Made by a program: the position numbers and the translations under genes. A stretch of 55,100 nucleotides of DNA from Magnetococcales bacterium. Its GTDB lineage: Bacteria; Pseudomonadota; Magnetococcia; Magnetococcales; JADGAQ01. Under the pieces are notes generated by a model. The model saw nothing but the letters and a program-made list of their open reading frames with translations. It did no database searches and was not told the origin of the DNA. The stretch lies in assembly GCA_015231925.1 (NCBI GenBank), contig JADGAQ010000006.1, forward strand, positions 1-55,100, in the 5' to 3' direction. Position 1 is the stretch's first letter; every line of letters starts with the position of its first letter. Below are positions 446 through 41,420 of the stretch, piece by piece.

Positions 446-615
446 TTTTGACTTTTAATATTTTATCTTTTAAGTATCAAAAAAAGGAAATGTTCTATCC
501 TTTGACGTTGATTTTATCTTTTCAATTAAGATAATCGGTCAGAGCGAGCGGAACGAATGGTCAATGAAAAAGTCAACGGACAGAACACGTTCTTTTTTTA
601 CTTTTTTAAAAGATT
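446..615. repeat. Rep-A element (degenerate inverted pair)
   Basis: AT-rich inverted repeat. The left arm (446-510) runs TTTGACTTTTAATATTTTAT, then CTTTTAAGTATC, an A-tract, GTTCTATCCTTTGACG. The right arm (567-614) is its imperfect reverse complement, with several substitutions. The loop of about 56 bases is unlike the loops of other copies. It lies 3' of the glycosyltransferase remnant and abuts Rep-B at 616. The gap 400-839 contains no gene, only this repeat, Rep-B and a GC hairpin. Confidence 0.8.
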
Positions 616-800
616 GTAACTATTCAGCCCCCTGACCAGCGCAGCGTGACCGAATCAAAAGAGAAAGGAAAAGTCCCAGGGGTGCCCCCTGGACCCCATG
701 GGGTTGGAGGTCAACGGCGAAAGGAAGAGTCCCAGGGCGCTGCCCTGGACCCGTCGGGGGGGATAATCCCCCCCGAACCCCCGTATACCTGAATAGATAC
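616..800. repeat. Rep-B element, complete copy 1
   Basis: 185 bp element bounded by GTAACTATTCAG (616-627) and CTGAATAGATAC (789-800), which are inverted repeats with 11 of 12 matching. Inside are a CCAGGGG/CCCCTGG-type hairpin near 675-695, a CCAGGGC/GCCCTGG hairpin near 733-750 and a GGGGGGATAATCCCCCC palindrome near 757-775. Copies at 11241-11427 (opposite orientation) and 39376-39562 share the same ends and order. No reading frame is conserved. Confidence 0.85.
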
Positions 801-839: not shown

Positions 840-2999
840 TCAGAAGGTGGTGGTCAGCCCGATATTGAAGGACCGCCCCTGTCCGGGAAGAGCCCAAACC
901 GGAACGGTGGTGTTGTTGAGGGCCTTCCAATCCCCGTAATCCACCCCACCCAGAGGGTCGGCGTAGTACTTGTCCAACAGATTGGTGATGCCGAGATCCA
1001 GCCTCCAGCCGTTATCCCATTTGTAGGAGCTGCGCAGATCCACCAATGCGTAAGCGGGGGTGGTCGGCTCCTGGCGCAGGGCATCGACATTGGACTTTTT
1101 GTCCACCAGTTGCACGGCCATGGCGTTATCCCAGGCGTTGAGCCGCTGTTCCAGGGTGACGGTGCCGTTGAGAGGCATCATGTGATAGAGATTGTCTCCG
1201 CTATCCAGCGTTTTGCCACGCACCCAGCCCACAACCCCCTTGATCTGCCCCTCGCCGAAACGATCATTGCTCCACAGATGGGTATGGCCGCTCAGGTCGA
1301 AACCATACATCTCGGCATCGTGGTTGGCGAACATCAACTGCACCGAATTGACGGGAGTGCGGGCGGAGGTGTTGGGGCCCCGGTCCACATTGATGTAGTC
1401 GTGGACGTAGGTGTAATAGGGGGTGATTTCAACCCCCCAGCTCTTTTTGGCACCCTCCTGCCAACGGGCGGTGGCGCTGAGGGTATGAGCCACTTCCGGT
1501 TCGAGATCGGGATTGCCCACATAGCCGTTGACATCCCCCAGCCAGTTGACCATGTTGCTGGCCATGGTGCCCGCCGACCAGGCGTAGCGTTCGTAAAGAT
1601 TGGGAGAACGGGTCTTGCGGGCGTAGCCGCCTTCATAGGTGGCGTTGGGGCTGGGCTCATAACGCACGGTGGCGGTGAGGTCGACATTGGTGTCGGTGCG
1701 ACTGCGGTCCCGGGCATTGAAGGCGTCGGCATCGGTGGCGTAACGCACCGCCGCCGTGTTCAGCCGGGAGTAGCCCTGAACCGGATCGGTATCCATGCGC
1801 ACCCTATCCCCGCGAAGGCCCAGAAGGGTGGTCCATTCCGGCTGCCATTGGGCCTGCCATTCGCCGAACAGACCGAAACGGTCCCGCTGCCCGTTGTTGA
1901 TGTTCCAGAAGGTATCCGGACTCATGCCCCCGTTGGGAGTGGCCGAAATGGGAGGCCACCAGTCGTCCAGGGTGAAGCGGTGGAAATCGTGACCCACCTT
2001 GAGGGCATGGTTCGCGGAAAGCTGGATTTCACCTTTCACATCGTATCCCAGATCGACCCCGTGGGTCTTCATCGGCATATTGCCGCTTTTTTCGGAAGAG
2101 ATGAAATTCATCTCATGGCGGGTGTCCTGCCAGTAGATTTTGCTATCGAGTTCACCCCAGCCGAAGGAGCCTTTGTAACCGGTATTGAGGAAGAGGCCCT
2201 GATTTTCGGTCATGTCCATGCGCTGATTGGGGAACCCCTGATAGGGGATGAACTGCATGCCGATTTTGACCGTGGCCTCCTGCTTGTCCCCCCGGCCTGC
2301 CAGGGTGATGCTGTGGTTCTGGGTTTCATAAAGGGAGGCCCGGACACGGTCTCCGTGGCCGTCCGTGTAATCCTGGGCGTGATCGGCGGCGCCGCTGTAG
2401 GCAAAGCTTGTGTTCCGCCCGGCCAGGGTGGTGTCGAAGGAGCCGCCCAGGCTGTTGTTGTTGCTGCGGTAGTGGGTGGCGATGCGGCCACTGGCCCGGC
2501 TCTCCGAGCCGGCGGGGGCGAAAACCGGGGCCGGAGAGGTGATGGCGATGGCCCCGCCGATGTTGTCCCCGCCGGCACTGACCGGGGCGATGCCCGCCAT
2601 GACGTTGATGCCTCCCACTTGCGCCGGATCGACGTAGGAGAGGGGGGGATTCATGTGATTGGCGCAGGCGGAGGTGATGGGCATGCCGTCGAGGGTGACG
2701 GCAAGGCGGTCATCCCCGAGACCGTGGATGATCGGCAGGCTGGAAACCCCGCCTCCCGTGGCCAGATTGACTCCGGGATGCGTTTTGAGCAGTTGCGCGG
2801 TGTCGTTGGTTTCGGTGCGTTTGGCCACGAGGGGTTCTTCCTCGCGGACAGCGGATTCACGCGGGGCGGAGACGGTGACTTCCGGCAGACGGGTGGTTCC
2901 CGCCTCTCCGGCGTCCGCCGGACCGGCAGGGAATACCGTTCCGGCCTGCAGGGGCAGGAGGAGAAGACCCAGGAGGCGGTGAGGTTTGAATCCGGACAT
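840..2999 (-). CDS. TonB-dependent outer-membrane receptor, copper-receptor-like
   Basis: A 719-residue beta-barrel receptor that would import a metal or metal complex with energy from TonB. The start at 2999 is preferred over the longer frame from 3074 because it follows an AAGGTG site and opens a signal peptide (MSGFKPHRLLGLLLLPLQAG). A TonB-box-like LPEVTVSA lies near residues 38-45, the plug covers about 50-175, and the barrel ends in the expected terminal Phe (TTTF). The plug motif CANHMNPPLSY (residues 112-122) resembles the C-x-NHMDPP-SY signature of OprC/NosA-type copper receptors. That points to copper but does not prove it. No exbB or exbD is in the window; a TonB-family gene lies about 22 kb away in the copper-storage operon. 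The upstream region carries interleaved inverted repeats that could be an operator. Confidence 0.9.
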   Translation of the reverse strand: MSGFKPHRLLGLLLLPLQAGTVFPAGPADAGEAGTTRLPEVTVSAPRESAVREEEPLVAKRTETNDTAQLLKTHPGVNLATGGGVSSLPIIHGLGDDRLAVTLDGMPITSACANHMNPPLSYVDPAQVGGINVMAGIAPVSAGGDNIGGAIAITSPAPVFAPAGSESRASGRIATHYRSNNNSLGGSFDTTLAGRNTSFAYSGAADHAQDYTDGHGDRVRASLYETQNHSITLAGRGDKQEATVKIGMQFIPYQGFPNQRMDMTENQGLFLNTGYKGSFGWGELDSKIYWQDTRHEMNFISSEKSGNMPMKTHGVDLGYDVKGEIQLSANHALKVGHDFHRFTLDDWWPPISATPNGGMSPDTFWNINNGQRDRFGLFGEWQAQWQPEWTTLLGLRGDRVRMDTDPVQGYSRLNTAAVRYATDADAFNARDRSRTDTNVDLTATVRYEPSPNATYEGGYARKTRSPNLYERYAWSAGTMASNMVNWLGDVNGYVGNPDLEPEVAHTLSATARWQEGAKKSWGVEITPYYTYVHDYINVDRGPNTSARTPVNSVQLMFANHDAEMYGFDLSGHTHLWSNDRFGEGQIKGVVGWVRGKTLDSGDNLYHMMPLNGTVTLEQRLNAWDNAMAVQLVDKKSNVDALRQEPTTPAYALVDLRSSYKWDNGWRLDLGITNLLDKYYADPLGGVDYGDWKALNNTTVPVWALPGQGRSFNIGLTTTF

Positions 3000-3134
3000 A
3001 GGGCACCTTATGCGGGTTGAGGGGGAGGATGCCGATCCACGCGGGATTGCGGGATGGACTGGATGGGCTGTCATCGCAAACGAGGGGCCATATACAACTA
3101 ATTAAATAAAACAGGTAGATGTATTATCAATTCA

Positions 3135-8789: not shown

Positions 8790-8797
8790 GTGGTAAA

Positions 8798-8832
8798 GGG
8801 GGCGCGGTTGAAATACCGCGCCCCCTTTTTTT
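8798..8832 (+). terminator. Rho-independent terminator of petABC
   Basis: GGGGGCGCGG (8798-8807) and CCGCGCCCCC (8816-8825) form a perfect 10 bp stem with an 8-base loop, followed directly by seven T (8826-8832). It begins 9 bases past the petC stop. Confidence 0.95.
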
Positions 8833-8999
8833 GCCTTTTAATATGTATCCTTTAAGTATCAAAAAAAGAAAATGTTCTATCCTTTGACTTTTCTCAAAAT
8901 CTTTTCAAGATATTATTGAATAGACAATAACAATAAAGTCAAAGGATAGAACATTTTCTTTTTTTGATACTTAAAAGAAAAAATATTAAAAGTCCAAAA
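8833..8999. repeat. Rep-A element with perfect 41 bp arms
   Basis: Best-preserved Rep-A copy. The arm at 8851-8891 (TTTAAGTATC, A-tract, GAAAATGTTC, TATCCTTTGACTTT) is an exact reverse complement of 8935-8975. Outside the arms the similarity continues imperfectly with TTTTAATATG and AAAATATTAAAA. The 43-base loop is AT-rich and unique. It sits between the petABC terminator and the convergent LysR gene. Confidence 0.9.
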
Positions 9000-9011
9000 A
9001 CTTCTGCTCCA

Positions 9012-11240: not shown

Positions 11241-11427
11241 GTAACTATTCAGATAAACGGGGGTTCGGGGGGGGGATTATCCACCCCGACGGGTCCAGGG
11301 CAGCGCCCTGGGACTCTTCTTTTTGTTGTTGACGTTCAATCCCATGGGGTCCAGGGGGCACCCCTGGGACTTTTCCTTTCGCCGTTGACTTCGTCATATC
11401 GCGCTGCGCGGGATCCTGAATAGTTAC
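11241..11427. repeat. Rep-B element, complete copy 2 (inverted)
   Basis: 187 bp element with perfect terminal inverted repeats GTAACTATTCAG (11241-11252) and CTGAATAGTTAC (11416-11427). Internal palindromes appear in the reverse order to copy 1, so it lies in the opposite orientation. A Rep-A arm begins 34 bases downstream. Confidence 0.88.
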
Positions 11428-11460: not shown

Positions 11461-11506
11461 TATCTTTTAAGTATCAAAAAAAGAAAACGTTCTATCATTT
11501 GGCTTT
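11461..11506. repeat. Solitary Rep-A left arm
   Basis: TATCTTTTAAGTATC, A-tract, GAAAACGTTCTATCATTTGG matches the left arm of Rep-A with three or four changes. No right arm is present within 400 bases. Confidence 0.75.
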
Positions 11507-14308: not shown

Positions 14309-14318
14309 GTTTATTTTG

Positions 14319-14377
14319 CCTTTCAATATGTATCCTTTAACTATCAAAAAAAGAAAATGTTCTAATCCTTTGACGTG
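14319..14377. repeat. Solitary Rep-A arm between TPR genes
   Basis: CTTTCAATATGTATCC, TTTAACTATC, A-tract, GAAAATGTTCTAATCC and TTTGACG match a Rep-A left arm with one inserted A. No partner arm lies nearby. It occupies most of the 108-base gap between the two TPR genes, immediately upstream of the first codon of the second. Confidence 0.78.
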
Positions 14378-14416
14378 CTTTTTCTGCCCTTATAAAACGT
14401 ATCATAAAGTCCCGTA

Positions 14417-17597: not shown

Positions 17598-17639
17598 GGT
17601 CGTTCCTCAACAGGGCCATTGCACTTGAAAATTACGGGG

Positions 17640-17820
17640 CTCCGGGGGGGATTATCCCCCCCCGGCGGGGTTCGGGGCAGCGCCCCGAGGTGTTGACGTG
17701 GCGGGTCGAAGCCAACAGGAGATTTGCCCAACCCCGCATCACCTCCAAACCCTATCCTATCTTCGACCCGCCCGGAGGGGGCAAGGGGAGGGCCTCATCC
17801 TCCCCATCCTTACCCCCCGG
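17640..17820. repeat. Rep-C copy 1
   Basis: It starts with a GGGGGGATTATCCCCCCCC palindrome, then a CGGGGC-AGC-GCCCCG hairpin, then GCGGGTCGAAG (17701-17711) and its exact inverse CTTCGACCCGC (17761-17771) separated by 49 bases, then a purine-rich GGAGGGGGCAAGGGGAGGG and TCCTCCCCATCC. It closely matches 40970-41147. It fills the gap 17598-17941, where no gene is seen. Confidence 0.85.
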
Positions 17821-29186: not shown

Positions 29187-29230
29187 CTTTAATGAAGTTT
29201 TAAGTATCAATACGTAGATATATTAAAAAT

Positions 29231-29459
29231 CATTTTACTTTCAATATTTTATCTTTTAAATATCAAAAAAAGAAAATGTTCTATTCTTTTGACTTTTCTG
29301 TTATTCTTTTAGAATGTTCTGAATATATACTTCAGAGCCAATGGCAAGACCCTTCCGGAAGGGTCATGAGAAATTTAGATAAATGATAATGAAAAAGTCA
29401 GAGGATAGAACATTTTCTTTTTTATATTTAAAAGATAGCATATTGGAAGAGCAAAAAAT
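29231..29459. repeat. Rep-A element with a palindromic centre
   Basis: Left arm (about 29231-29298) and right arm (about 29392-29459) match the Rep-A arms with a few changes, separated by about 95 bases. The centre holds the perfect 18 bp palindrome GACCCTTCCGGAAGGGTC (29348-29365). The gap 29187-29634 contains this element and the sqr leader, and no gene. Confidence 0.85.
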
Positions 29460-30909: not shown

Positions 30910-31130
30910 AAAAATCGCTCGCTTCATGTCATGAGTGTCGGGGGTCGATCGCCACCTGAAATTAATATAGGTTTTCGAGCCCCGGCTTCCTGAATGAAAG
31001 CCGCCGGAAGAAATCCCACCCCACGGGCGATGGGTTTGATAAGGTTATTTCAATTGGCAAGCTGTTTATGATGGGTGATAATGGGCACTGGATCGAGCGT
31101 CCCAACCTGTCGGAAATCCCGGTTGCCGCC

Positions 31131-33803
31131 ATGAAAAAGCTTTTACTACTTGTCTGTTTGTTCTGGACGCTCCTGATTGTGGCTTCTCTCCACTGGAACC
31201 TCCACAAGGAGCGGCAGGAGAGCCTCAATATGGCGATGAACAGCGCTCGGGCCCATTTCAACAAGGATCTGGCCCTGCGCCATTGGGCCACTTCCCACGG
31301 AGGGGTTTATGTTCCGATAGACTCCAACACCCCTCCCAGTCCCTATTTGAGCCATATCCCCGAACGGGATCTGACCACCCCCTCGGGCAGACGGCTGACC
31401 CTGATGAATCCCGCCTACATGCTGCGTCAGATCATGGAACAATACAGCGATCTGTACGGAGTTCGGGGCCGCATCACCAGCCTCAAACCGCTCAATCCCG
31501 CCAATGCGCCCGATGTCTGGGAAGCGAAGGCGCTGCACGCCTTCGAAAGGGGGGAGACGGAAGTCCAGGAATTCACCAGCATCGGGGATGAACCCTTCCT
31601 TCGTCTCATGCGCCCCATGATGGCCACGGTGGGGTGCCTCAAATGTCATGCCCACCAGGGCTACAAGGTGGGGGATGTGCGGGGTGGCATCGGGGTGTCG
31701 GTGCCCATGCAGCCCTTTCTGGAACAGGAAAACATTGGAACCATCCTGACGACACATGGGGTGTTCTGGTTTTTGGGCATGTTGGGCATGGGTTGGGGTT
31801 ACTCCCGGTGGTATGCCCAGGAGAGCCGGCGTCGGGCCATCGCCGAGGAGTTGCGTCTTTCCGAAAAGCGTTTCCGCGCCCTCTTCGAAAAGAGCCCCAT
31901 GCCCATGCAGATTTGTGGTCGGGACGGCCGCACCATTCAGGTCAACCAGGCCTGGGAGAAGATGTGGGGGGTCGATCTGGCCTGGCTGCAGGAACGCCGC
32001 TACAGCATTCTGGATGATCGGGAGGTGGCCAGACACGGTCTGGATACGGAGATACGGCGTGCCTTCGCCGGCGAATCGCGGGATCTGGGACCCATTCCCT
32101 ACGATCGTTCCACGGAAGGCGGACCGGATCATGCCGGTATCATCTGGGTCAGGACCTGCATCTATCCCATGGGTACCGGGTCGACGGAGGGGATTTCCGA
32201 GGTGATCCTGATCCACGAAGATGTCTCCCAGCACTATCGGGACCGTATGGCCCTGCAGGCCAGCGAGGAGCGATTCCGTTCGCTGTTTCAGTCTTCCCCG
32301 GATGCCATCTTCCTGGCCGATCCGGAAAACGGCCTGCTTTTGGATGCCAATGTGGCGGCGGCGCATTTGATGGGGCGGGAAGTGAGCGAAATCCGTGGCT
32401 GGCATCAAAGCCGGCTGCATCCCCCCCGTGAAGAGGAGAAGGTGCGGGCGCTTTTCCGACAATGCGTGGAGCAGGATCCCGATGTCGTCGGCAAGCCGAC
32501 CGAGATGAACATCCTGCGTTCCGACGGCCAGGAGGTGCCGGTGGAGGTGGTGGGTACGGTCCATCTCATTGGCGGGCGACCCATGCTGCAGGGCATCTTC
32601 CGGGATATCACCGAACGCCAGCGGGCGGCGCGGGAGTTGCGGCGCTATCATGAGGAGCTGGTCCATTCCAAGGAGCAGGCGGAGGCGGCCAACCGGGCCA
32701 AAAGCGAGTTTCTCGCCGCCATGAGCCACGAAATTCGCACCCCCATGAATGTGGTGATCGGTATGGGGGATATTCTGCTGGATTCGGGCCTGGAGGAGGA
32801 GCAGCTTGGCTATGTGCGCAAGTTGCAGCAGGCGGGCAACAACCTGCTGGAACTGATCAATCAGATTCTCGACTTTGCCAAGATCGAGGCGGGCAAATTG
32901 AAGTTGATGGAAGAGACCATCGATTTGCCGGGGTTGCTTGAGGAAGTGGTGGCGTTGATGCAGGTGCTGGCCCGCAACAAGGGGCTGGCGCTGAACCTGC
33001 AGCTGGACCCGAACATGCCCCGATGGGTGCGCAGCGATGCCATGCGTCTGCGTCAGGTATTGTTCAATCTGGTGGGCAACGCCGTGAAATTCACCGACCA
33101 GGGATCGGTACACCTGGTCACCCGGCGGGATGGCGGGGTCTGGCATCTGGTGGTGGAAGATACGGGCGTAGGGATCTCCGAGGCGGATTTGCAGCGGATA
33201 TTCACCCCCTTCACCCAGGTGGACGGGGGACTGACCCGACGCCACGGCGGCACGGGTCTCGGCCTGGCTTTGTCCCGGGCACTGATCTCTCTGATGGGCG
33301 GCAGCCTGCGGGTGGAGAGCCGGGAGGGGCACGGCAGCCACTTCGAAATCACTTTGCCCTTGTATCTGCCCACCACTCCGGAGGTTGCGACGGAAGGCGA
33401 AGTGGCCACGGCCATGCCCGGCAGGGCCAAACGGGTTCTTCTGGTGGAAGATTCGATCGACAATCAGGAGCTGATCCGGGCTTTTCTCAAGGGAACGCCC
33501 CATCATCTGGAGGTGGTCAACAACGGGTTGGAAGCCTTGGACAAGGTGGGTCGGGAGCGCTTCGATCTGGTGTTGATGGATGTTCAGATGCCGGTGATGG
33601 ACGGTTACAGTGCGACGCGCGAGATCCGGCGGCGGGAGGGGCGGAGCGGAGAGAAACCACTGTTTATCGCCACGCTGACGGCCCATGCCCTGGAAGGTGA
33701 AGAACAACGCAGCCGGGAGGCGGGGTGCGACCTCTTTCTGACCAAGCCGATCAAAAAGAAGCACTTGTTGGAGGTGATTTCCGAGGTGGAGGGAGGGGAG
33801 TGA
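31131..33803 (+). CDS. Hybrid histidine kinase with a CxxCH sensor domain
   Basis: An 890-residue membrane sensor. ATG 31131 places the first transmembrane helix at once ([18 protein letters not shown]); ATG 31068 is an alternative with no better ribosome binding site. Residues about 25-205 form a periplasmic DUF3365/Tll0287-like domain with the c-type heme motif CLKCH at 169-173. A second helix follows ([15 protein letters not shown]), then two PAS domains (about 245-370 and 375-500), HisKA with phospho-acceptor His533 ([11 protein letters not shown]), an HATPase domain (GTGLGLALS) and a C-terminal receiver with Asp817 ([13 protein letters not shown]). There is no HPt domain. The heme suggests redox or gas sensing. 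It follows sqr on the same strand across about 220 bases, so sulfide-linked signalling is an inference. Confidence 0.93.
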
Positions 33804-33844: not shown

Positions 33845-33989
33845 TTTTGACTTTCAGTATGTTATCTTTTAAGTATCAAAAAAGGAAATGTTCTATCCTT
33901 TTGACTTTTTTAGTCATTAAAGGAATAGTCCCAGGGCGCTGCCCTGGACCCGTCGGGGGGGATAATCCCCCCCCGAGTCCCCGTATATG
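33845..33989. repeat. Rep-A arm joined to half of Rep-B
   Basis: A Rep-A left arm (33845-33910: TTTGACTTTCAGTATG, CTTTTAAGTATC, A-tract, GTTCTATCC, TTTGACTTTTT) is followed after about 8 bases by the inner half of Rep-B (from AAGGAATAGTCCCAGGGCGC to the GGGGGGATAATCCCCCCCC palindrome and CCCCGTATAT). The Rep-A right arm and the Rep-B outer half are missing. The junction ends directly at the stop codon (33990-33992) of the helicase gene. Confidence 0.8.
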
Positions 33990-35435: not shown

Positions 35436-35652
35436 GCAAAGGCGGATACCGGCTTGACTGATCCGGACGATGACGCCTTATCCGCTGAATTGGGATCCGC
35501 CCGGCAGAACAGAATGGTCTGGAATGGGGAGATTGTCAATCAATAAACCATTGGAGCCGATTGTAACATGGTGAAGCAATTGTTCAGGGGGGATCTGAAA
35601 CGAATGAGGGAGTTGTAATACTTCCGAGACCAGGCAGGGGTTTATTAAAAAT

Positions 35653-35833
35653 CTTTTGACTTTAAATATTTAATCTTTATAAGTATCAAAAAAAGAAAAT
35701 GTTCTATCCTTTGACTTTTCCGTTATTTCATTCATCAATATTCATAACTCAGTTTTGTAATTTACTCGAATGACAAATAAAAAGTCAAAACATTTTCTTT
35801 TTTTTGATACCTAAAAGATTAAATATTGAAAAA
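35653..35833. repeat. Rep-A element with a shortened right arm
   Basis: Left arm about 35653-35718 and right arm about 35780-35833. The right arm lacks the eight bases GGATAGAA after AAGTCAAA, so it jumps to ACATTTTC; the left arm retains them. The loop of about 60 bases is unrelated to other loops. The gap 35436-35862 holds this element and the upstream region of the helicase, with no gene. Confidence 0.83.
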
Positions 35834-35862
35834 CAAATAAATATAAAAATATTGATTTTCTC

Positions 35863-37552: not shown

Positions 37553-38461
37553 ATGAATTTTCTGCACCTTCCCAACGCTCCCCTTGAGCAGGCCCGTGTG
37601 GTTATCCTGCCGGTACCCTACGAAGGCACCGTTTCCTGGGGGCATGGGGCGTCACGGGGGCCTGCCGCTCTGCTTCAGGCTTCCGGCAGCCTGGAATATT
37701 ACGACGAGGAGTTGCGTCGGGAACCGTATCGGGACGGCTACCATACCCTGCCACCGGTGGGGGTCGAGCTGGCCTCTCCGGAGGCGATGGGGGAGGCCAT
37801 CCGGCAGGCGGCCCTGCCCCATGTGGTGGCGGGACGAGTGTTGGCGGCTGTCGGCGGGGAGCATGGCATCACCCCCTGGTTGGTAGACGCGGTGCGTCAG
37901 GCTCGGGGAGACGATTTCGGCATTCTGCAACTGGATGCTCATGCCGATATGCGGCACAGCTACCAGGGCACAATCTGGTCCCATGGCTGCGTCATGCGGC
38001 GTCTGGTGGAGAAGGGGCTGCCCGTGACCCAGGTGGGTATCCGCTCCCTGAGTCAGGAGGAGGCTCTTTTCCTGGCGGAGACGGGTGGGGAAAATCGTCT
38101 CTTTTGGGCCAGGGAGATCTGGGAGGAGACCCGCCGGGGTGAGGATCGGTGGATCGCGCGGGTGATCGACCAGTTACCGCTGAAGGTCTATGTAACATTG
38201 GACCTGGATGGACTCGATCCTTCGGTGTTGCCGGCAACGGGCACACCGGTGGCGGGGGGGTTGGGTTTTTACGAGGTGTTGCGCCTGTTGCGGCGGGTTG
38301 GAGCGGAGCGGGAGGTTGTGGGGCTGGACCTCGTCGAACTGGCTCCGCTGCCGGGCAACGAAGTCAGTGAACAGGTGGCTTCCCACCTGCTCTACAAGAT
38401 GTTGGCCTATTTCGTTCGAGGGGGTTGTGAAATGCTCCCCACCAAGTCGGGATGCATATAA
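37553..38461 (+). CDS. speB: Agmatinase
   Basis: A 302-residue ureohydrolase that splits agmatine into putrescine and urea using two Mn ions. All metal ligands are visible: His104 in GGEHG, Asp128, His130 and Asp132 in LDAHAD, and two Asp in TLDLDGLDPS. The N-terminal VILPVPYEGTVSWGHGASRGP and the His in SHGCVMRRL also fit agmatinase rather than arginase. Together with the divergent speA it completes arginine-to-putrescine conversion. A Rep-A arm starts 10 bases downstream of the stop, and no terminator is seen. Confidence 0.95.
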   Translation: MNFLHLPNAPLEQARVVILPVPYEGTVSWGHGASRGPAALLQASGSLEYYDEELRREPYRDGYHTLPPVGVELASPEAMGEAIRQAALPHVVAGRVLAAVGGEHGITPWLVDAVRQARGDDFGILQLDAHADMRHSYQGTIWSHGCVMRRLVEKGLPVTQVGIRSLSQEEALFLAETGGENRLFWAREIWEETRRGEDRWIARVIDQLPLKVYVTLDLDGLDPSVLPATGTPVAGGLGFYEVLRLLRRVGAEREVVGLDLVELAPLPGNEVSEQVASHLLYKMLAYFVRGGCEMLPTKSGCI

Positions 38462-38470
38462 AATCCGTTG

Positions 38471-38532
38471 GTTTTCAATATGTTATCTTTTAACTATCAA
38501 AAAAAAGAAAATGTTCTGTCCTTTGACTTTTT
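38471..38532. repeat. Rep-A left arm, outer pair member
   Basis: GGTTTTCAATATGTTATC, TTTTAACTATC, an eight-base A-tract, GAAAATGTTCTGTCC and TTTGACTTTTT match the left arm. Its inverted partner is the right arm at 39312-39375, so the two bracket about 780 bases including the lysine-rich gene. Confidence 0.78.
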
Positions 38533-38867: not shown

Positions 38868-39134
38868 ATGAAAGTAAAAGCTTTTCTTGTTGCCATGGTG
38901 TTGGCGCTGTCCATCATGGTCGGTGGAACCTATTCCCAGGATGCCTTTGCCGCTTCCGGAATGCCCTCCTATGATGCGCAGGGCCAATCCCAGGTGCAAA
39001 AGGCCAAGAGCAAGAAGCATGTTGCCAAGAAGAACGCCAAGAAGTCCCATGCCAAAAAGGCCAAGAAGTCCGGCGCTGCCAAGAAGGCCCATGCCAAGAA
39101 GAAGGCCAAGAAGAAGAGCCGCATGCCCGCCTGA
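38868..39134 (+). CDS. Small exported lysine/alanine-rich protein
   Basis: An 88-residue protein. A clear signal peptide (MKVKAFLVAMVLALSIMVGG) ends near AFA-A at about residue 29, then a short Ser/Gln-rich linker. Residues about 45-86 are almost only Lys, Ala, Ser and His, with repeating KKAKKS and HAKK units like histone H1 or AlgP tails. The mature protein would be very basic and disordered. Because it is exported, nucleoid binding is unlikely; it might bind envelope polyanions, extracellular DNA, or mineral surfaces, all speculation. It is preceded by AGGAGA and followed by a strong hairpin, and is bracketed by a split Rep-A pair. Confidence 0.85.
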   Translation: MKVKAFLVAMVLALSIMVGGTYSQDAFAASGMPSYDAQGQSQVQKAKSKKHVAKKNAKKSHAKKAKKSGAAKKAHAKKKAKKKSRMPA

Positions 39135-39221: not shown

Positions 39222-39311
39222 GAGGGTCGGATTGACCTCTTTGCAGCCCCGCTCTCTCTCCTGAGCCAAAACGGCGAAGCAATCATTCAAGAAAGATCTG
39301 AATGATAAATG

Positions 39312-39375
39312 GAAAGTCAAAGGATAGAACATTCTCTTTTTTGATAATTAAAAGATAATATATTGAAAATCAAAA
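39312..39375. repeat. Rep-A right arm, outer pair member
   Basis: GGAAAGTCAAAGGATAGAAC, ATTCTCTTTTTTGATAATTA and AAAGATAATATATTGAAAATC match the right arm with few changes. It is inverted relative to 38471-38532 and touches Rep-B at 39376. Confidence 0.8.
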
Positions 39376-39562
39376 GTAACTATTCAGACCCATGAACGGT
39401 GCCGCATGATCGTGTCAACGGCGAAAGGAAAAGTCCCGGGGGCGCCCCCTGGACCCCATGGGGTCGGAAGTCAACAGCAAAAGGAAGAGTCCCAGGGCGC
39501 TGCCCTGGACCCGTCGGGGGGGATAATCCCCCCCCCGAACCCCCGTATATCTGAATAGTTAC
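39376..39562. repeat. Rep-B element, complete copy 3
   Basis: 187 bp, perfect terminal inverted repeats GTAACTATTCAG (39376-39387) and CTGAATAGTTAC (39551-39562), same orientation and palindrome order as copy 1. It starts immediately after a Rep-A right arm. The gap 39135-39620 contains the 13 bp hairpin, this Rep-A arm and this Rep-B copy, and no gene. Confidence 0.88.
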
Positions 39563-40910: not shown

Positions 40911-40969
40911 GGAATGGCCCGGGAAAATAAGAGTTAAGAAAGTGTGATAGATGAGTTTTTAAGGCATGC

Positions 40970-41147
40970 GGGGGTCCGGGGGGGCTAGCCCCCCCGGCGG
41001 GGTTCGGGGCAGCGCCCCGAGGTGTTGACGTTGCCGTAGCGGGTCGAAGCCAAAAGGAGAAATGCCCAACGTCGCATTGTCTCCAAACCCTGTCCTCACT
41101 TCGACCCGCCGGAGGGGGCCAGGGGAGGGTCTCATCCTCCCCATCCG
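40970..41147. repeat. Rep-C copy 2
   Basis: Same order as copy 1: GGGGGGGCTAGCCCCCCC palindrome, CGGGGC/GCCCCG hairpin, GCGGGTCGAAG (41039-41049) with CTTCGACCCGC (41099-41109) separated by 49 bases, then GGAGGGGGCCAGGGGAGGG and TCCTCCCCATCC. Inside the 49 bases, GGAGAAATGC can pair with GCATTGTCTCC. Confidence 0.85.
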
Positions 41148-41235: not shown

Positions 41236-41420
41236 AGGATGGGGAGGATAAGGCCCTCCCCTGGCCCCCTCCGGCGGGTCGAAGTGGTTACGAAGATCGT
41301 GTAGGGAACCCGATTGGTGCGCTTTCCTTTTGGCTTCAACCCACCAAAGGCCAAGTCAACACCTCGGGGCGCTGCCCCGAACCCCGCCGGGGGGATTATC
41401 CCCCCCCCGGACCCCCGTAT
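41236..41420. repeat. Rep-C copy 3, inverted relative to copy 2
   Basis: Reverse complement of the Rep-C plan: GGATGGGGAGGA, CCCTCCCCTGGCCCCCTCC, GGCGGGTCGAAG, a diverged interior, a degenerate CTTCAACCCACC, the GGGGC/GCCCC hairpin and the GGGGGGATTATCCCCCCCC palindrome. With copy 2 it makes a large inverted repeat around an 88-base centre. The gap 40911-41440 contains only this pair. Confidence 0.83.

What the first reader, a model, noticed from the sequence alone, without database searches (positions are those of the whole stretch)
8833..8999. Rep-A: dispersed AT-rich element with perfect 41 bp inverted arms
Arms 8851-8891 and 8935-8975 are exact inverses, while loops differ between copies. 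Paired copies lie at 446-615, 29231-29459 and 35653-35833, and single arms at 11461, 14319, 33845, 38471 and 39312. Conserved arms with variable loops suggest a MITE-like mobile unit or a hairpin kept by selection.
Basis: seen in the sequence. Interest (0 to 1): 0.7.

Follow-up and report, generated by a model that had tools for sequence, protein, structure and literature searches.

The report
Repeated DNA hairpins after stop codons
The genome of an uncultured Magnetococcales bacterium carries well over a hundred AT-rich hairpins built from the same two mirror-image 60-base arms, almost always just after the end of a gene; they are probably a home-grown family of gene-end structures like the REP/REPIN repeats of other bacteria, with no sign that they jumped in as classical mobile DNA.

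Summary
The 41-base arms at 8851-8891 and 8935-8975 are exact inverses, and they belong to a high-copy family: 368 arm cores in the 4.5 Mb genome, 0 for the reversed control pattern. The full arm is about 60 bp. Arms come as inward-facing pairs around a loop of mostly 25-85 nt. The loops are essentially unrelated between copies.

The MITE reading is weakened. There is no target-site duplication, while the same kind of test finds an 8-bp duplication in a neighbouring family, Rep-B. The family's outermost bases vary, no transposase was found within the arms, and no Y1/RAYT transposase gene was found in the genome.

The 'hairpin kept by selection' reading gains. None of 251 arms lies inside a gene. 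Occupancy of convergent, tandem and divergent gaps is 14.1%, 6.3% and 0%, matching the number of gene 3' ends per gap. The two arms covary above every shuffle.

I file it as a lineage-specific, REPIN/BIME-like family of 3'-end hairpins, most likely bidirectional terminators or mRNA 3'-end stabilisers. How it spread is unknown. One odd fact: unpaired arms are as conserved as paired ones, so a single arm may be the functional signal.

The parts
8827..9000 (.). Rep-A element of the finding; best-conserved span 8835-8992; follows a canonical terminator hairpin (8795-8828) of the cytochrome c1 gene
8830..8893 (+). left arm (41-nt perfect part 8851-8891)
8894..8933 (.). loop, sequence not shared with other copies
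8934..8996 (-). right arm (41-nt perfect part 8935-8975)
447..612 (.). paired Rep-A copy; outer part of right arm missing where Rep-B (616-800) begins
29230..29457 (.). paired Rep-A copy between two tandem genes
35652..35840 (.). paired Rep-A copy; right arm carries the recurrent deletion in the inner core
11461..11506 (+). single arm lacking its outer 20 positions, next to Rep-B 11241-11427
14315..14378 (+). single arm; outer end faces a gene start (an exception)
33845..33909 (+). single arm at the 3' end of gene 31068-33803, followed by Rep-B-like sequence
38466..38532 (+). arm 5 bp after arginase-family gene 37553-38461; opposite partner 778 bp away
39311..39375 (-). arm facing 38466-38532 across a small gene (38868-39134); abutted by Rep-B 39376-39562

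Best explanation
Rep-A is a lineage-specific, high-copy family of extragenic inverted-repeat elements, comparable to REPINs/BIMEs, that sit at gene 3' ends. Transcribed from either side, each element gives one long hairpin of about 55-60 bp. A T-rich tract follows the inner stem in both directions: stem GUUCURUCCUUUGACUUU, then AUUUYCUUUUUUU. I infer that it works as a two-way 3'-end structure that ends transcription and/or shields the upstream mRNA from 3' exonucleases. The arms are kept by selection at each site while the loop drifts freely, apart from its length. Shown: copy number, pairing geometry, 3'-end placement, arm constancy, arm covariation, loop non-homology, absence of a target-site duplication. 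Inferred: the RNA function and its selective cause. Unknown: how the copies were originally spread.
For: Arms are inward-facing pairs: 87 convergent pairs under 700 bp against 0 outward-facing ones. No arm of 251 lies inside a predicted gene, though 85% of the DNA is coding. Pairs lie in 31 ++, 29 -- and 22 +- gaps and 0 divergent gaps, where 26% of long gaps are divergent (p = 2e-11). Gap occupancy 14.1: 6.3: 0% follows the number of 3' ends per gap, 2:1:0. In tandem gaps the median distance to the upstream stop is 10.5 bp against 58 bp to the next start. The example folds at -69.2 kcal/mol, z = -14.9. Over 48 elements, the tandem ones oriented by transcription, 90.3% of cells pair against 89.3 +/- 0.3 shuffled; 71 double changes against 47.8 +/- 6.8; 0 of 500 shuffles reach either. 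At arm column 43 a G facing an A in the partner arm (G-U pair in RNA) occurs 17 times, the reverse (A-C mismatch) 5 times. Loop length is mostly 25-85 nt, also after Rep-B insertions are subtracted. Variable positions within arms are near linkage equilibrium, so the elements are old and constrained rather than fresh copies.
Against: Core conservation (most positions 97-100%) exceeds what base pairing alone needs. Arm column 53, inside the stem, does not covary (p = 1). Unpaired arms are as conserved as paired ones (58.5 vs 58.2 bits) although one arm does not fold. Some elements follow an ordinary terminator or sit inside pyrR-pyrB-pyrC and gsp gene runs, where a strong terminator would be polar. 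The terminator-depletion test was uninformative because the scan was insensitive. Covariation could partly reflect co-inheritance of the two arms. No transcript data exist.
Confidence: 0.55

Rival explanations
1. Rep-A is an old MITE family moved by a transposase now lost or unassembled. Its 3'-end bias is a survival filter, because insertions in genes or promoters were purged; the arms are transposase-binding ends and the loops have decayed.
For: Dispersed, high copy, confined to one lineage, paired inverted arms. The draft assembly would lose multi-copy transposases: almost no near-identical multi-copy proteins are in the sample.
Against: No target-site duplication while Rep-B shows 8 bp in 13 of 61. 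Outermost bases vary and some ends lack the outer TTTTGA. Two elements whose arms differ at 2 aligned positions have unrelated loops. Only gene-free or passenger-gene interiors seen. Neutral decay would not keep cores at 97-100% in both paired and single arms.
Confidence: 0.2
2. The single arm, not the hairpin, is the functional unit: a sequence-specific, oriented site read by a protein (3'-end processing or termination factor, topoisomerase or nucleoid protein). Pairs simply present two sites.
For: Single arms are as conserved as paired ones, and 60 of 76 point their outer end to a gene 3' end (p = 4e-7). Conserved at sequence level beyond pairing, with two purine-only positions varying freely. 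A lone arm does not fold.
Against: Arms pair within a narrow range of loop lengths and covary as complements. In tandem gaps the second arm faces a gene start, which a pure 3'-end signal would not need. Some singles may have lost their partner recently.
Confidence: 0.15
3. The arms are DNA-uptake signals spread by biased uptake, with inverted pairs doubling as terminators, as reported for DUS.
For: Sequence-specific arms, unrelated loops, inverted pairs at gene ends, no duplication. DUS pairs are reported to form terminators (PMC2267715).
Against: The unit is about 60 bp and its core does not occur more often than the whole arm (354 vs 368 hits). None of 251 is inside a gene, unlike known uptake signals, which are common in genes (own knowledge).
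Confidence: 0.04

Closest known systems
REPINs (REP doublets forming hairpins; PMC3116915)
   Same: Two highly conserved inverted sequences around a spacer whose length and folding seem to matter; high copy; extragenic; singles also present.
   Different: Rep-A arms are about 60 bp, AT-rich and do not fold alone; loops vary in length; no RAYT (Y1 transposase) found in the genome; singles are not more decayed than doublets.
E. coli BIME / PU (REP clusters)
   Same: Concentrated at gene ends, frequent between convergent genes, and themselves targets for other mobile DNA (PMC1525189), as Rep-A loops are for Rep-B.
   Different: No GC-rich palindromic REP unit; sequence unrelated; no gyrase/IHF/Pol I data.
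ERIC and other long stem-loop repeat families (PMC2267715)
   Same: A single long stem-loop, intergenic, reported in Yersinia to affect neighbouring genes as an RNA hairpin.
   Different: ERIC has a conserved interior (own knowledge); Rep-A has none.
Intrinsic bidirectional terminators
   Same: Stem followed by a T-rich tract on both sides, placed after stop codons.
   Different: Very long AT-rich stem, large loop, T tract interrupted and able to pair; not found by a standard terminator scan.

Membership tests
MITE | target-site duplication | tested here: not met
   no excess over shuffled flanks at any length or offset in 80 elements; similar test finds 8 bp in Rep-B
MITE | conserved terminal bases | tested here: not met
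   outer columns 1-8 vary (0.56-0.90) and are absent in some copies
MITE | copies share their interior | tested here: not met
   60 short loops, one weakly similar pair
MITE | partner transposase with the same ends | tested here: inconclusive
   none seen within arm pairs; draft assembly may lack it
REP/REPIN (RAYT-linked) | Y1 (RAYT) transposase in the genome | tested here: not met
   PF01797 absent from the 97%-complete own genome, control genomes ring
REP/REPIN (RAYT-linked) | each unit is itself palindromic | tested here: not met
   two single arms fold no better than shuffled, z -0.01 and -0.41
REP/REPIN (RAYT-linked) | inverted conserved doublet around a spacer, extragenic, high copy | tested here: met
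Intrinsic terminator | stable hairpin followed by a T run after a stop codon | tested here: inconclusive
   hairpin and placement met; standard scan reports only the adjacent GC-rich terminator
Intrinsic terminator | RNA 3' ends at the site | not testable with these tools
   no transcript data
Known Rfam RNA | match to a curated family | tested here: not met
   no gathering-level match in the window

The most novel reading that the evidence does not exclude
A bacterial lineage has equipped a sizeable share of its gene ends with a sequence-specific, oriented 60-bp 3'-end signal that is read by a dedicated factor and works singly or as an inverted pair. It multiplied without carrying its loop along, that is by a mechanism other than transposition of the whole unit.
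Probability: 0.13. Interest if true: 0.75.

Novelty: new variant of a known kind. Interest (0 to 1): 0.42.

Why it matters
REP/REPIN-like families are usually explained by RAYT transposases and by copying of whole units. Here the arms are strongly conserved, the loops unrelated, no RAYT was found, and the copies track gene 3' ends in the ratio 2:1:0. That makes it a clean case for asking whether such repeats are kept because they serve gene ends rather than because they move. The presence of 8-bp-duplicating Rep-B copies inside the loops also parallels IS elements that target REP sequences, seemingly by convergence.

Tried and rejected
Perfect arm identity as evidence of recent origin or of arm-to-arm conversion: rejected, since core identity within elements is close to that between elements. 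HGT to another family (G008): rejected; its two arm-bearing contigs are probably misbinned, because G008 has its own pyrB (72% identical) while the window's genome lacks one. A duplicated L118 segment as a clock for loop evolution: ambiguous, because homology starts at the Rep-A boundary and may reflect recombination between elements. Depletion of ordinary terminators near Rep-A: scan too insensitive. Viral contigs, plasmids and Rfam: nothing. Long arm pairs as autonomous elements: they enclose passenger genes (antitoxin-like, AAA ATPase, small secreted protein), not a transposase. Papers on repeats in Magnetococcus or Magnetococcales: none bearing on this found in the held library.

Full report
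WHAT IS THERE. The arms at 8851-8891 and 8935-8975 are exact inverses over 41 nt; shuffled windows give at most 13. The window is a contig (C6, 55,100 bp) of a 4.51-Mb, 358-contig, 97%-complete draft genome. Its held relatives are placed in the same order; the one relative whose title was seen is a Magnetococcales MAG. The 27-nt arm core occurs 190 + 178 times with up to 3 mismatches; the reversed control pattern gives 0. Among 48 genomes of the order, only this genome and one other (G008, 14 matches on two contigs) hold it, apart from a stray one-mismatch hit to a shorter pattern. The named genome collection, viral contigs and plasmids add nothing beyond those two contigs. G008 has a second pyrB and the own genome lacks a close one, so the G008 contigs are probably misbinned, perhaps from the window's own lineage (inference).

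ANATOMY. I sampled 98 stretches (1.69 Mb) and found 251 arms, forming 87 inward-facing pairs under 700 bp apart; outward-facing pairs under 700 bp: 0. The arm is about 60 bp. The 27-bp core is 97-100% constant at most positions, with freely varying R at columns 43 and 53 and Y at 56; the outer 34 columns are less constant. A recurrent deletion in the inner core appears in some arms. Loops are 24% GC, mostly 25-85 nt, and keep that length once Rep-B insertions are subtracted. Their sequences are essentially unrelated: among 60 short loops one pair shares 21 nt, and two elements whose arms differ at only 2 aligned positions have different loops (alignment). A single arm does not fold; the whole element does, at -69.2 kcal/mol, z = -14.9.

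WHERE IT SITS. Using a simple codon-model gene caller of my own, no arm lies inside a gene. Pairs occupy 14.1% of convergent, 6.3% of tandem and 0% of divergent gaps, matching two, one and zero gene 3' ends per gap. The absence from divergent gaps has p = 2e-11. In tandem gaps the element starts a median 10.5 bp after the upstream stop and ends 58 bp before the next start; the stop codon often lies inside the element's outer end, as TGA in TTTTGAC or TAA in TTTTAAT. Single arms also point their outer end to a gene 3' end, 60 of 76. In the window the example lies between the cytochrome c1 gene, with its own GC-rich terminator, and a convergent LysR-type gene.

MOBILITY. No target-site duplication shows in 80 elements. 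The same kind of test on Rep-B, a roughly 185-bp GC-rich family with ends GTAACTATTCAG / CTGAATAGTTAC, gives an 8-bp duplication in 13 of 61 against 0.3 expected, so the test can see one. Rep-B sits in Rep-A loops far more often than the small loop length predicts (26 of 147 places), as some IS elements do in REP sequences (PMC1525189). No Y1 transposase is found; arm pairs enclosing genes hold passengers. The draft may lack multi-copy transposases, so this is not proof.

CONSTRAINT. Variable positions inside an arm are near linkage equilibrium, so there are no clear subfamilies. With unrelated loops and constant cores this fits old elements under purifying selection better than recent copying. 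The two arms share unusual bases more than shuffled partners: outer part 83 vs 51.7 expected. The paired structure scores above every shuffle on cells paired and covariation, and above every slid version. The effect is modest: column 53 is independent, and overall core wobble-type changes exceed A-C mismatches only 62 to 41, p = 0.05. Related sequences can inflate such scores.

MECHANISM. I take the element to act at gene 3' ends as an RNA hairpin readable from both sides. The inner stem is followed by a T-rich tract. Because the outer arm and loop come first, that tract lies well beyond the distance at which a ribosome at the stop codon represses a terminator (PMC4824070). Termination or protection of the mRNA end are both possible; neither is shown. 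The main tension is that single arms are as conserved as paired ones, which a pure hairpin does not explain, and that elements occur inside pyr and gsp gene runs on the misbinned contigs.

COMPARISON. It works most like REPINs (PMC3116915) and BIMEs, but fails two REP features tested here (RAYT present; unit palindromic), so it is not filed as a REP/REPIN. It fails three MITE features. I rate it a new variant of a known kind.

Noticed in passing
window 616-800, 11241-11427, 39376-39562; fragments at 1-55 and 33919-33974: Rep-B: a GC-rich repeat of about 185 bp with ends GTAACTATTCAG / CTGAATAGTTAC and an 8-bp target-site duplication, a good MITE candidate, enriched inside Rep-A loops.
   Followed up: partly
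window 17632-17812, 40966-41146 and 41237-41407: Another GC-rich dispersed repeat (CCGGCGGGGTTCGGGGCAGCGCCCCGAGGTGTTGACG...), up to 98% identical over about 46 nt, partly inverted.
   Followed up: no
window 38868-39134: Small gene for a signal-peptide-bearing Lys/Ala-rich protein lying between two facing Rep-A arms.
   Followed up: no
L106 (G008 C153) 2872-3043: Three Rep-A arms in direct tandem at 54-bp spacing between pyrB and pyrC, opposite one arm at 2626.
   Followed up: partly
G008 contigs C153 and C253 (JADGAP010000238.1, JADGAP010000044.1): Probably misbinned contigs in MAG nNGHbin13: second, 72%-identical pyrB and the only arm-bearing contigs of that bin.
   Followed up: yes
Rep-A loops, e.g. 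L067 4071, L074 5488, L064 8432: A short third motif (TTGCAAAACGGCGAAGCAAT...) recurs in some loops and beside some single arms.
   Followed up: no
L130 3008-4017 and 7944-8953: A stretch of about 1.0 kb spanning one gene is repeated nearly exactly at about 4.9 kb spacing.
   Followed up: no
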